Below are positions 27,501 through 44,621 of a stretch of 64,000 nucleotides of DNA, in pieces (positions within the stretch are counted from its first letter, which is position 1; every line of letters begins with the position of its first letter). Origin of the DNA: Blastomussa wellsi (Eukaryota > Cnidaria > Anthozoa > Scleractinia > Plerogyridae). Below the pieces are notes generated by a model. That model saw only the letters and a list, made by a program, of their open reading frames with translations, was not told the DNA's origin and made no database searches. A program made the translations under genes and the position numbers. The stretch lies in NCBI GenBank assembly GCA_947652115.1, contig OX393567.1, forward strand, positions 22,567,532 to 22,631,531, written 5' to 3'.

Positions 27501-30500
27501 CCTGACTCCGAAGGGATCCCGGCTGTCTACCAATGGTTCGCAGAGATATTTCGTTATAGCTCACTCGCCACAAATTGCTCGCCAATTCCTTCTCAAGCTT
27601 CTGTTTCCTGTAAAAGAAAATCCGCTTTAACCAAAATTAATGGAATCCATTTATGTATGACTTCTATCTTCGATTATATTTGTTGGGAGTCTAAGAAATT
27701 CCGCGAATAAACAAATCAGGCTGAACATGTCTAAAACTGAAACTACGAAATATTGAAAGACAATAATTTTTCTAATGTCATTTTGACGATAGACCTGACG
27801 GCTCAGTTGCAAATGTCTATTTTTTCTGTATGAAGTAAAAATAACTTAACCCTATTTAAAAGCCCTTTCAAAATGAGGAAGAATAGAGTTTTCCTCTTTT
27901 TGAAATCTTCATTCGTTCCAGAGACATTCACGTTTTTGTAGTATGTAAATTAGATGACTGGTGACGTCTCAAGTGGTTCCAGTATGGGGTTAAAACACAA
28001 AATTAAGAATATCACTGCAAATAATACAGCAATACAGATGAAACTTGGCACAAGTATTGTGCGCTACGAAATACACCACATGGTACCTATTTTGATGTTA
28101 CTATGGCAACACTCTTGGTTCCAGATCTCTTTTATGCAGCAATGACAAGTACTGTTTCTTATCTTTACCAAACATTATCCACTTCCTAAACTTCCTAATT
28201 CTTCTTTCAGAGCCATCATGGTAACAATGCGTTCAAAGAGGAAAGAGACTGGAACCCAGAGTATTGCCATAGCAACATCAAAATAGGCACCATGAGGTGT
28301 ATTTCTTAGGGTACAATAGCGTTGCCAAGTTTCAACTGCATTGCCTGATTATTTGCAGAGATATTCTTCACTCGTTCTGTTTTGACCCCATACGGGAACC
28401 ACTCATGATGTCATCAGTTATCTAATCTGCATAATAAAAAAAACGAGAATATCTCTGGAACGAAAGAAGATAGCATAAAAACACCATTCTTCCTCATTTT
28501 GAAAGGGCTTTCAAATAAGCTTAGCGTGATTTTTACTTCATGGGCAGTCAATTTAACCATAGGCCCGGATGTAATGTAAGTGTAATTTCTAAGCACGATG
28601 TTTTTTCAATATTTTTCCTTTACTTCACTTCTTTATTGTGACTAATCGAACTAAAACACTTTGGTGCGGGCAAATGTTTTTTCGTGTAATATGTTACGCC
28701 GACCAACTTACCTATAAATTACTGCTCCAACAAACAGAATAAAAACAACAAAGACGCCAAGACAGATAGAGACAATCTCTGCCACCGCTACACGAAGGAA
28801 AATGTAACATGTATGTTAGTATAATTAAGTTACCAGCTGAGTGTTATCCAATACATTTTTCAGTCCTCTGTGTCTTGAAGCTCGCCGCAACAAATAATCC
28901 TCCTTTTCAACGAAACGCTTTTAATTGTATCATAAACATAATGTTACTACAAGGGAATCCGCATTTGGATTTAAAATCCTGATTTTGCTGGATTTTAAAC
29001 TTCATTTCTGGATTTCGCGTTTTATTGGGAAATCCGAACCCGGATTTTAAAATTCAAATCCGGATTCACCGATCGAATGCTCTCATAGAATCTCATTGAA
29101 AATATTTTCCTCTTAATGAAACCATTTGCTTTGCTGGTTAGTTATTTTTTCGTCTATAACATTGGGAAAAATTTTGACGAACTTTTGTGACTTCTAAAAA
29201 TATGACTGACGGAGTGGCCGTATAAAAGAGATTCTTCAAAGAAATAAAAAATGACTGACCTAGCATTTATTCGGGTCCGAAACCTTGGCAAATGTGAAGG
29301 TCCGTTAAAACTTACATAAAACTTACATAAAATTGGTGTTGGTTTTTCCTCAATACATTTCTCGTTTTCAAAACCGCACTTTGGGGAATCAGCTGGAGGA
29401 GCTCCTTTGATCCACCCGATAGTAGCGTTAGGATACAGCTGGAAATATGTCTCTGTGCCATTCATTTTCTCCTCTACAGTAAACATCCCTACGTTATCGA
29501 AGTAAGGCGTCCCTAACCAATAAAAAATACAAACAAAAGTTTGGAGAAGAGGTCGCATTGTATTACTCTATAAAGATGTTCTTTGGCATTTTTGTTTTCG
29601 AGATTTTCTCCCCCACAAAGCTCCTCGCCTTGGATACAAAAGTATGACTACTTTGTTGAGCATGCTTTTCAAACGACACAAAATACGAGTTTCTATTCCG
29701 TCTACAGCCTTTATGCTTACAGCAAAGAAAGGAATTGAAAATAATTCAATGATATTCAAACAGAAATAACTTAAGGTTCAGGAAACACAAATTTCGTTTT
29801 TATTCTATGAGAATGCGAATCTGAGAGGCGAGACATGAAACAAGACTAAGTTTTTTTCGTGATATAGAAAAAATCTGAGCCCTCGACAGGATTCGAACCC
29901 ATGTCCTCCCAGATTCACGTTGGGCGCTCTAACCAGCTGAGCTACGAGAACTCTTGGTGAGCTCCGTCATTTTCTAGCTTAATATATGACAAGCGTCCTT
30001 TATACTACTAGGGTCGGTTTTGGGGGTGATGCTTCATATACCAAGTCAATATATGCACTATTGTGTCTTTCTATTGTGTGAAGTCTATTGTGCTATTGTT
30101 TAAGGGCTAGGCCAAATTTTTGTGTTTTTTGTGACGTACTTCGGGCTTGCTATTGACTTGATATATGGCGCTCCACCCAGTTTTGGTAGGTTTGAACGAG
30201 TGCAATAACACGCAATATGGGATCGTGAGAGGCAGGCGTGGCCTAGTACTAATGTAATCCGAAAGTCCCGGGTTCAAATCCTTCTCTCTGTCACTAGATG
30301 GATTTGTGCTTGATTTCCCCCGACTGCAACTCGTTCACGCTTTCTATGTATCACGTTCCAGTTAAGAATTCTTGTTTGGAAGTTTCTGATAGCTACAATA
30401 ACTGTTTGTCTATTTAAGAGCCCACGATGCATGGGAGATTACTGAGACACCAAAAATTCAGTTTCCCTAAAAGTTTTATCTTACCTGTATCGTTACTAAA

Positions 30501-42400: not shown

Positions 42401-44621
42401 ATCTATATTTTTCTTATGAAAGATAATTGTTCTTTTGGGGGTTTTGTTTTCTTGTTTTTCATTTTTGCTATGTATACGGGGTTTTGGTCAGCCTGAGGTT
42501 GCTAAATGATTCCTCACTTTCTAGCTATTTTAAAGTATTAGTTAACTGTGAAATTTTATAATTTTTTTTAAACTTTGATTAACACTTTGACGATCGTAAG
42601 ATAAAAAAATTAAATGAAGATTTGAAATCGAAACGCGTGTTTTTATGTTTATCAGTTGCCTTCGACGACTGCGTGTAAGTTTTGCGCCAAACCTTTATGA
42701 AGATGATTACGATTTTGTTGAAACCGGCGAGTGGATGAATTTATATTCCGATTGTTTGAGGTCACGAGTGGAATTGAGCCGGTGGCTTGCAGCTTTACCC
42801 ATATGATAAGGAGATATTTTATTGTCAATCTACTGTTTTTAAATTGGATGGAATAAAACAATATTTTTATATGCCAAGTATAACAACTACAGTGTAATAC
42901 AAACACCGAAACCGGCTTTTGGAGAAAATATATTGCCCGTCACTGAATTAAATGGCAAGGAATAGAGCTATCGATGACTGTTTTGCAACACAAAGCCGGC
43001 CTGTGTTATAAAATTGAAAAGCTATGGAAACCATTTCAAAAAAACTTAATAATGTTGCTGTATTGTATTCTCTCGCGAGGGTGTCAAGATAACGCATAAC
43101 ACCTCTATGTGAACTTTTAGAACCGATGGAATTGAAAACCACACAGGCAAATAGAGCACATTTGTTTCGTTCGTTTGATAGCTGCCGAAAGGAAATCTGT
43201 GTTTAACTGCGGTTTTCCGTAGAGTAAATGTTTCGCTAAATGCGTGGTTTTCAAATCGTGACGAATTTTCTGGTAAATAGCGAATGTAATGACGTCCGTA
43301 GCTCCGCACTAAATATATGTATATTAGCTAGAATAAATCTACTGACAAAGCACTGTTTGTAAGCTGCGGAACTTTTTTAAAAGCCTATTGCTAACGCAAC
43401 ATTTTAATATCCTTTAAAGGATTCGTGTGTGAATACTCGAAACATTCTTAACCCAAAGTGAAACTCGACCAAACCAACCGAGTGTAAAGTTTATAAGACA
43501 AAGTTTACGTTCTCTTTCACGTTTTCGTCACGGCTCGTTGTCGATACCTGAGTTCAACCGTGTTTACTCAAGTCTACACTTTTTATATCAGCCCCATACC
43601 TTATTCTTTTCCCCCAGTTGTGGATATCATTGCCTAAGAAAAGCTAAATTCTTTGAAAGTGTCGAAAAGTGAGCGGAACTTACAAGTTAAACCAGGGTTT
43701 ACTACACATTGGCGAACTACCCGTAACCTGTAGCACTAACAATGAATTTCTCGCCAGCACGAAGTGTACACAGTTGATGAAGTGTGTTTGCCCGCATTCT
43801 CTCTGATCTTGCGAACAATTACAATTCCCAAAAGACTATTTTTATTAACTGCTTAGGGGTGCGACATTCAAAAGTACAAACGCAATTTTATAATGGCTCT
43901 TGCGGCGGCTAGATCGATTTATTTTCTAAATTTGCCAGGTGAAGAAGTAGAGATGGAGCTCTTGTTATAAGAATGTCCCAAAGAAAAATCTTTGCGGTCA
44001 ACCATGACACTTCAGAAATACAAGTAATGATACTAGCAATCAACGACTACTTCATAGCTCAATTTCACGCTACATTTCGTAAGAATAGAACTGATTTTCG
44101 GAACAATTAAGGCTTTCTTGTATAAACGGTTATTTGGCAGCGGTGGTTGCAGCAAGGTTACTTATATAGATACATTATCAACTCTTAACTTGTTGCTAAA
44201 TCCGTTTTGATGCTGTACTTACATAGGAAATCATCGGGATATTTGCGGCTGCGGCCAGCCTTGCTTGTGTTTTACAGGTGCATCCAGGCCCAATGATACC
44301 TTGTACCCCTTTTTCCAACTGATACAGCATCGCTTTGAGTGAAAGCTCCTCGTTGCACTGAGTATCATTCCACACAAATGTTATTTGATGCCCAGGAAGC
44401 AACGATGAATCGTTGTTGACTGCTTTTACAGCCAGTACCAATGCTGAAGCGTACTGTCCAGTAGCGGCTGAAACATTAGCCGACACATTATACGGCAGTA
44501 AAAATCCCAATGTAACCACACCGGCCTCCGATCTTATAGTTTGTAAAGACAAAACAAACAAAACCTGAAGCCATAACTTGTTGTTGTTGCTAGACGGTGC
44601 ACTCAGTGTTCTCAAGTTCAT
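36409..44621 (-). CDS. rGC gene C: ectodomain-only receptor guanylate cyclase paralogue (6 exons)
   Basis: Six intact minus-strand exons: 44223-44621, 39045-39351, 38521-38828, 37375-37510, 37010-37096, 36409-36561. They give about 463 codons with phases 0,1,0,1,1,1, exactly as in genes B and D. The ATG at 44621 opens a leader and hydrophobic stretch (WLQVLFVLSLQ), then [33 protein letters not shown] and PMISY. Later exons carry LYPTFSRT, GLNNGHFAFIMF, AYLYDAVFQYAVALN and GILGYD-like motifs. The last exon ends in a cysteine-rich juxtamembrane stretch (CGSCGEHC) at a phase-1 donor. No membrane, kinase or cyclase exon lies between 36409 and gene B's first exon at 34875. Either these exons splice onto gene B's exon 7 onward, or reading into the intron ends at a TAG (36386-36388) after eight extra residues to give a soluble ectodomain, or C is a truncated duplicate. 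Intact sites and frames argue against simple decay. Confidence 0.82.
36795..36970. repeat. GGAACACC foldback element, copy 2
   Basis: Same layout as 13260-13438: TACTAAAACCAGGAACACCG at the left and tandem GTGTTCC units with TTTCAGTACATGCC at the right. The repeats are more diverged. It lies in gene C between exons 5 and 6. Confidence 0.72.
38448..38505. repeat. (ATT)n microsatellite next to gene C exon 3 donor
   Basis: About 17 ATT units with a CATCAT start lie 15-16 bp inside the intron from the exon 3 donor (38520, minus strand). Reading through it in the other direction gives the long asparagine run seen in a fake ORF. Confidence 0.85.

What the first reader, a model, noticed from the sequence alone, without database searches (positions are those of the whole stretch)
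28712..44621. Ectodomain-only gene C upstream of complete gene B: shared intracellular module by alternative first-cassette splicing?
Gene C has a full set of six ectodomain exons with intact splice sites, then nothing for 1.5 kb until gene B's signal-peptide exon on the same strand. Its last donor (36409) is phase 1, and gene B's membrane exon acceptor (28787) accepts phase 1. A transcript from C could skip gene B's ectodomain and join the B membrane, kinase-homology and cyclase exons. That would be a protocadherin- or UGT1A-like layout for a receptor guanylate cyclase: several ligand-binding heads on one effector. I know of no such rGC locus. Seen: exon sets and phases. Inferred: the splice.
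Basis: partly seen in the sequence, partly recalled or inferred. Interest (0 to 1): 0.78.

Follow-up and report, generated by a model that had tools for sequence, protein, structure and literature searches.

The report
Two-headed coral receptor guanylate cyclase
What looked like a bodiless receptor head next to a complete receptor is most likely one gene for a receptor with two sensor heads in a row on a single cGMP-making body, a design also seen in relatives from corals and sea anemones.

Summary
The anatomy is confirmed. Six intact ectodomain exons ("gene C", 44621-36409, minus strand) lie upstream of a complete receptor guanylate cyclase ("gene B", 34875-15293). Donor 36409 and membrane-exon acceptor 28787 are both phase 1, but that match is expected: C and B's ectodomain are copies of one six-exon block.

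The proposed splice 36409->28787 is not supported. Related proteins point instead to 36409->34790, inside B's first exon just past its signal peptide. That makes one 28-exon gene for a 1584-residue receptor: signal peptide, head 1 (C), head 2 (B), membrane helix, kinase homology, cyclase. It is collinear with an unnamed 1572-residue protein on a 5.3-kb contig (66% identity). Six of six relatives found with head 2 (two corals, two anemones, two unnamed) carry head-1 sequence in front of it; none joins head 1 to the membrane helix. Heads 1 and 2 form two clades, each with corals and anemones, so the duplication is old.

B's own signal-like peptide is uncommon by chance (8 of 3486 site-frame cases, itself included), so B may also be made alone and head 1 be optional. 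No RNA of this species was available. I saw no two-headed receptor guanylate cyclase in ten literature searches.

The parts
   Evidence: donor GTAAGT, end phase 0
39045..39351 (-). exon 2, head 1
   Evidence: end phase 1
38521..38828 (-). exon 3, head 1
   Evidence: end phase 0
37375..37510 (-). exon 4, head 1
   Evidence: end phase 1
37010..37096 (-). exon 5, head 1
   Evidence: end phase 1
36409..36561 (-). exon 6, end of head 1; donor 36409, phase 1
   Evidence: donor score 8.58, eighth highest of 27
34483..34790 (-). exon 7, start of head 2, entered in phase 1 at internal acceptor CAG|AGGG
   Evidence: junction CYT-EGNLTIG matches CYN-EGNLTIG (P0007) and CYN-DGNLTIG (P0006); P0004 has one residue more
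34791..34875 (-). ATG plus signal-peptide-like coding stretch [29 protein letters not shown] (its last codon is completed in exon 7); possible alternative first-exon start for a single-headed form
   Evidence: 8 of 3486 acceptor-like site x frame cases in the window reach the cut-off, this one included
32235..32544 (-). exon 8, head 2
30929..31308 (-). exon 9, head 2
30686..30821 (-). exon 10, head 2
30485..30568 (-). exon 11, head 2
29327..29512 (-). exon 12, end of head 2, end phase 1
28712..28787 (-). exon 13, transmembrane helix
20425..27607 (-). exons 14-21, juxtamembrane and kinase-homology domain (27607-27502, 25908-25834, 25282-25205, 23959-23855, 23088-23017, 22438-22273, 21434-21276, 20608-20425)
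15293..19783 (-). exons 22-28, linker, guanylate cyclase domain, C-terminal tail and stop (19783-19643, 19206-19083, 18832-18764, 18014-17840, 16915-16817, 16195-16104, 15532-15293)

Best explanation
It encodes a receptor guanylate cyclase with two natriuretic-receptor-type ligand-binding domains in series: signal peptide, head 1 (exons 1-6), head 2 (exons 7-12), one membrane helix, kinase-homology domain, cyclase. Shown from sequence: the exons, phases, open frame, and collinearity with relatives. Shown by tree: heads 1 and 2 are an old tandem copy of the six-exon ectodomain block. Inferred: the splice 36409->34790 in this species. Inferred: head 2, next to the membrane, does the usual natriuretic-receptor-like dimerisation and twist that switches on the cyclase, while the faster-changing head 1 is a second sensor or a modulator, so cGMP output depends on two sites per chain.
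For: Joining 36409 to 34790 gives a 1584-aa frame without a stop. By BLASTP, query residues 6-1583 align with all of P0004 (1572 aa, 66%), residues 134-1583 with all of P0006 (Montipora foliosa, 1443 aa, 67%), and residues 379-1584 with P0007 (83%). P0004's 4.7-kb frame sits on a 5286-bp contig and P0007's 3.6-kb frame on a 6364-bp contig; the matching stretches here span about 29 and 22 kb, so these contigs look like RNA (inference). Actinostola (P0010) and Actinia tenebrosa (P0011) proteins have the same order of heads and a junction of the same length as the window model. Pfam counts two ANF_receptor stretches in the window protein, P0004, P0006, P0010 and P0011; one in P0007 (its head 1 is cut) and one in single-headed P0014. 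Tree of 23 heads: seven head-1 rows one clade (99/98), seven head-2 rows one clade (100/99), each with corals and anemones. The two exon blocks share all six end phases.
Against: No transcript of this species was available. The 34790 acceptor is weak: 3.09 bits, second lowest of the 27 in the model, and 12th of 82 AG sites between 36380 and 34485. The peptide just upstream is a good signal peptide, as if B had its own start. Of the six relatives, P0005 (A. cervicornis model, 55% to the window) lacks head-1 exon 5, the first strand of head 2 and the cyclase; P0011 ends before the cyclase; P0006 lacks head-1 exon 1; P0007 starts in head-1 exon 4 although its contig has about 2.7 kb outside the frame, unexplained. 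So only P0004 and P0010 hold both heads and the whole body.
Confidence: 0.88

Rival explanations
1. Optional-head locus: besides the two-headed receptor, an internal start at 34875 makes a single-headed B receptor with its own signal peptide, so exon 7 serves both as an alternative first exon and as an internal exon. This is compatible with the best explanation, not exclusive of it.
For: An in-frame peptide [29 protein letters not shown] lies directly before acceptor 34790, with hydrophobic peak 2.71 against 1.87 for head 1's own signal peptide. Only 8 of 3486 acceptor-like site x frame cases in the window reach 2.5, itself included; one of the other seven is gene D's presumed signal peptide and two are overlapping readings of one stretch. 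The fusion predates the coral-anemone split by the tree, so an unused signal peptide should have decayed. The 34790 acceptor is weak, as alternatively used sites often are (general knowledge).
Against: 0 of 6 relatives with head 2 start at head 2, although the length limits (about 871-2772 aa) admitted a form of 1149 aa. The database is clustered at 90% identity, so short isoforms could be hidden. Conservation of the peptide in other genomes could not be tested. The cut-offs of the chance control were chosen after seeing the peptide.
Confidence: 0.35
2. One reading: transcripts from C skip head 2 and join 36409 to 28787, giving alternative single heads on one effector.
For: The join is in frame and without an internal stop (1116 aa).
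Against: The phase match follows from block duplication. In 6 of 6 relatives head 1 runs into head 2, and none joins head 1 to the membrane helix. The length limits (about 614-1953 aa) would have admitted such a protein; its seven rows held none, though only the 7991 candidates sharing most words were scored and minor isoforms may be clustered away.
Confidence: 0.05
3. C is a separate gene for a soluble or short-tailed decoy: read-through past 36409 stops after GKASDRR with an AATAAA at 36344, or an alternative last exon at 35799 supplies a hydrophobic segment and a short tail (clearance-receptor-like).
For: Read-through stop and AATAAA at 36344; acceptor-like site 35799 (5.55 bits) opens a phase-1 hydrophobic frame of 48 aa. 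Two unnamed partial head-1 proteins, P0001 and P0002, end in sequence that looks like unspliced intron, so truncated head-1 messages may exist.
Against: 17 of 500 shuffles give a terminal exon as good at thresholds set after seeing it, and 137 of 500 at looser ones. Its hydrophobicity is 1.94 against 2.96 for the real membrane exon. None of the proteins returned has such a tail. P0001 and P0002 stop at different introns, as partly spliced RNA would.
Confidence: 0.06
4. C is a recent pseudogene of a duplicated receptor that lost its 3' half.
For: Further rGC-type genes A and D lie in the same window.
Against: C is about 35% identical to the head 2 of relatives yet has all splice sites and an open frame; its orthologues stand in front of head 2 in corals and anemones.
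Confidence: 0.02

Closest known systems
Natriuretic peptide receptor guanylate cyclases GC-A/GC-B (NPR1/NPR2) and single-headed cnidarian rGCs (for example Euphyllia ancora GC-A, PMC6787079)
   Same: ANF_receptor head, one membrane helix, kinase-homology domain, cyclase, in that order; head 1 aligns to the NPR1 ectodomain over query 55-459
   Different: Two heads in series in one chain; E. ancora GC-A is reported as 1,049 residues with a membrane helix between LBD and kinase-homology domain, and no second LBD is mentioned in the parts I read (Results, Discussion; supplement not read)
Trypanosome receptor-type adenylate cyclases
   Same: Two extracellular Venus-flytrap domains in most of them, one membrane helix, a cyclase domain (PMC6027212, passages read)
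   Different: cAMP not cGMP, no kinase-homology domain in the layout shown there, a distant lineage; resemblance of layout only, no homology test was made
Tandem-flytrap bacterial sensor kinases such as BvgS (cited in PMC6027212; tandem layout recalled)
   Same: Flytrap domains in series outside one membrane helix
   Different: Histidine kinase output, unrelated family (recalled)
Protocadherin and UGT1A alternative-first-exon loci (recalled)
   Same: If the internal start is used, exon 7 onward would be a constant part with an optional upstream part
   Different: Head 1 is added to head 2, not swapped for it

Membership tests
Receptor guanylate cyclase | ANF_receptor-type ectodomain | tested here: met
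   two stretches in the window protein, E 2.6e-93
Receptor guanylate cyclase | single membrane helix followed by kinase-homology domain | tested here: met
   membrane exon 28787-28712 (hydrophobic peak 2.96), PK_Tyr_Ser-Thr E 1.2e-41
Receptor guanylate cyclase | Guanylate_cyc domain with catalytic motifs | tested here: met
   E 1.9e-68; motifs [28 protein letters not shown] present (meaning of the motifs recalled)
Receptor guanylate cyclase | cGMP made on ligand binding | not testable with these tools
   needs expression
Receptor guanylate cyclase (classical layout) | one ectodomain per chain | tested here: not met
   two heads in series in the model and in its relatives; splice in this species inferred
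Protocadherin/UGT1A-type locus | alternative variable exons each joined directly to the same constant exon | tested here: not met
   6 of 6 relatives keep both heads in one chain; tested on relatives only, no transcript of this species was seen
Protocadherin/UGT1A-type locus | separate promoter for each variable exon | not testable with these tools
   a signal-peptide-like start at 34875 only
Clearance receptor (NPR-C type) | ectodomain plus membrane helix with short tail, no cyclase | tested here: inconclusive
   candidate exon at 35799, 17 of 500 shuffles as good; none of the proteins returned supports it

The most novel reading that the evidence does not exclude
One locus makes two receptors from one effector: a two-headed receptor guanylate cyclase from the 44.6-kb start, and a single-headed one from an internal start at 34875. 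Head 1 is then a switchable, faster-evolving second sensor that corals and anemones have kept in front of the same cyclase, so a cell could choose between one-input and two-input cGMP signalling.
Probability: 0.3. Interest if true: 0.72.

Novelty: new variant of a known kind. Interest (0 to 1): 0.55.

Why it matters
Receptor guanylate cyclases are described with one extracellular binding domain per chain (for example the general layout in PMC1435932, passages). A two-headed form kept in corals and sea anemones gives a natural case of two sensors in series on one cyclase, and raises whether it reads two ligands, pairs its heads within a chain, or gates a hormone or gamete signal. PMC6787079 (2019) says that no receptor for sperm attractants had been identified in cnidarians; receptors of this kind are candidates worth testing, though nothing here ties this gene to sperm. 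It also warns that gene finders, or a reader, may split such a locus into a bodiless gene and a complete one.

Tried and rejected
The chimera of C with B's membrane-to-cyclase part was built and is in frame. A hidden membrane exon between C and B was sought: one candidate at 35799, not convincing. Read-through to a soluble head was considered. The phase match was set aside as evidence because of the block duplication. The window's own genome could not be searched: the genome search was asked six times in the same form and never answered, so other cyclase exon sets for C elsewhere in the genome were not looked for. Structure prediction was not run: the two-headed relatives exceed 1200 residues, except P0005, which lacks pieces. 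DNA of the relatives was not available, so dN/dS, promoter conservation and the signal peptide in other species were not tested. Limits of the protein searches: searches scored only the 7995 and 7991 candidates sharing most words (one search scored all its 5671); entries are clustered at 90% identity. Dropped rows: P0003 (named as a calcium-sensing receptor of a fish) was left out of the comparisons and tree; P0001 and the short head-1 piece of P0007 were left out of the tree, in which P0002 is a fragment and WIN_A and WIN_D have long branches, so that their places are unsure.

Literature: ten searches of the open-licence PMC library. In the rows listed I saw no two-headed receptor guanylate cyclase; several searches matched more papers than were listed (for example 2,442 with 15 listed, 220 with 20, 91 with 12), most subscription papers are not held, and supplements were not readable. 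Papers: PMC6787079 outline with abstract, Results, Discussion and find passages; PMC10394420, PMC6027212 and PMC1435932 passages only; the rest as search listings.
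Full report
Observation. The minus strand holds six ectodomain exons at 44621-36409 with canonical splice sites and an open frame of 463 residues, then a complete receptor guanylate cyclase of 22 exons and 1149 residues at 34875-15293. Pfam finds ANF_receptor in C, and ANF_receptor, kinase and cyclase domains in B; head 1 aligns to the solved NPR1 ectodomain over residues 55-459. The gap of 1618 bp is an ordinary intron length for this gene (27 introns, 107-4871 bp).

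Why the phase match proves little. Head 1 and head 2 are the same exon block twice: six exons each, end phases 0,1,0,1,1,1 in both, lengths 399/308, 307/310, 308/380, 136/136, 87/84 and 153/186 (the first head-2 exon is counted from 34790). Any block that ends like head 2 will fit the membrane exon.

What relatives show. With C alone as query (length limits about 255-810 residues; 7995 candidates scored) the protein set gave three rows: two unnamed partial head-1 proteins, which end in what reads like unspliced intron, and one unrelated receptor. With C joined to B's membrane-to-cyclase part as query, scored on C only (limits about 614-1953; 7991 candidates scored), it gave seven rows: P0004, P0005 (Acropora cervicornis), P0006 (Montipora foliosa), P0007, two single-headed anemone receptors (P0008, P0009), and the unrelated P0003. 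Reading P0004-P0007 showed that head 1 does not run into a membrane helix but straight into a second head, without a second signal peptide. The matching place in the window is an acceptor, CAG|AGGG at 34790, in phase 1, right after B's apparent signal peptide. Joining there gives 1584 residues without an internal stop. That protein is collinear with P0004 (66% over 1590 columns), P0006 (67%), P0007 (83%, from head-1 exon 4) and P0005 (55%, a gene model with missing pieces). A third search, scored on residues 450-960 around head 2 (limits about 871-2772; 5671 candidates), gave eleven rows: the same four, two sea-anemone proteins (Actinostola P0010, Actinia tenebrosa P0011) that are also two-headed, and five single-headed receptors P0012-P0016. 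So six of six relatives with head 2 carry head-1 sequence in front of it, none joins head 1 to the membrane helix, and none begins at head 2. Not all six are whole: P0004 and P0010 have both heads and the full body; P0006 and P0007 lack part of head 1; P0005 and P0011 lack the cyclase.

Are those relatives real messages? P0004's 4.7-kb frame lies on a 5286-bp contig and P0007's 3.6-kb frame on a 6364-bp contig, whereas the same parts span about 29 and 22 kb here; they are therefore most likely RNA contigs (inference; the source codes 'lgn' and 'jgi' were not explained). Why P0007 starts only in head-1 exon 4, with about 2.7 kb of contig outside the frame, I cannot tell. P0005, P0006, P0010 and P0011 are annotations of genome records.

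Age. A tree of 23 heads puts the seven head-1 rows in one clade (99/98) and the seven head-2 rows in another (100/99). Each has the two anemones outside the corals, and the rows that both clades share branch in the same order. The duplication therefore predates the split of sea anemones and stony corals (Actiniaria and Scleractinia; lineages of Actinia tenebrosa and Montipora foliosa). Heads 1 and 2 are sisters with moderate support (92/91; the tree is rooted at the midpoint). Window against P0004: head 1 is 53% identical, head 2 62%, the membrane-to-cyclase part 80%; against Actinostola 40, 44 and 73%. Head 1 changes fastest.

The signal peptide in front of head 2. The 29 codons before head 2 read [29 protein letters not shown]. 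Among the other 26 internal exons, two have an in-frame Met 15-45 codons upstream, with weaker hydrophobic peaks of 0.83 and 1.82 against 2.71. Over the whole window, 8 of 3486 acceptor-like site x frame cases reach a peak of 2.5 with a Met 18-40 codons upstream; these include this one, gene D's presumed signal peptide, and two overlapping readings of one stretch. The cut-offs were chosen after seeing the peptide. With the weak acceptor (3.09 bits, second lowest of 27, 12th of 82 AG sites nearby) this suggests that exon 7 may be both an alternative first exon and an internal exon. It could also be a relic of two once-separate genes, but the fusion is old, so a relic should have decayed. No relative returned shows the short form.

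How it probably works. In natriuretic receptors the ectodomains of two chains pair, and ligand binding turns the juxtamembrane part and activates the cyclase (general knowledge of the NPR family). Here head 2 holds the membrane-proximal place and the better-conserved sequence, so it probably keeps that role. Head 1, joined by only a few residues (the match of head 1 to NPR1 ends at 459, head 2 begins at 464), would sit on top as a second ligand site or modulator. This is inference; no ligand is known to me.

Known and new. By domain content this is a receptor guanylate cyclase; by layout it departs from one head per chain. Most trypanosome receptor adenylate cyclases have two flytrap domains on one cyclase (PMC6027212, passages), a similar layout in another lineage. 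E. ancora's six rGCs are described as holding a ligand-binding, a kinase-homology and a cyclase domain; the parts I read mention no second ligand-binding domain. Its GC-A runs at 155 kDa against a predicted 117 kDa, put down to modification by the authors; I do not claim that this protein is two-headed. In the listed rows of ten searches I saw no description of a two-headed receptor guanylate cyclase.

Verdict. Observation confirmed; interpretation right that C goes with B's body, not supported about the join. New variant of a known kind, interest 0.55.

Noticed in passing
window 1-2331, minus strand: Gene A: a further rGC-type ectodomain (exons 1-3 visible by eye) running off the window; it groups with single-headed coral and anemone receptors, with a long branch.
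   Followed up: partly
window about 57100-64000, plus strand: Gene D: a divergent rGC-type ectodomain with its own presumed signal peptide, six exons visible by eye, cut by the window end; position in the tree unsure.
   Followed up: partly
window 5524-9648, minus strand: Open 1374-aa Ty3/Gypsy-like polyprotein frame with protease, reverse transcriptase, RNase H and integrase matches.
   Followed up: partly
window 4272-5174 (-) and 61787-62671 (+): Two very similar frames of about 300 aa in opposite orientation with a weak reverse-transcriptase match, below Pfam's cut-off in both.
   Followed up: no
window 29877-29951, minus strand: tRNA-Ser-like gene (anticodon TGA) inside the head-2 intron between exons 11 and 12, called by ARAGORN with the bacterial code.
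   Followed up: no
window 27847-28523: Nested inverted repeats (longest arms 120 nt, 85%) in the intron after the membrane exon, like a small foldback element.
   Followed up: no
window 15961-16088: Inverted repeat, 43-nt arms at 98%, in the last intron.
   Followed up: no
P0001 and P0002: Head-1 proteins that end in apparent intron 3 and intron 2 sequence; possibly partly spliced or prematurely ended head-1 messages.
   Followed up: partly
PMC6787079: E. ancora GC-A runs at 155 kDa against a predicted 117 kDa; the authors suggest modification.
   Followed up: no
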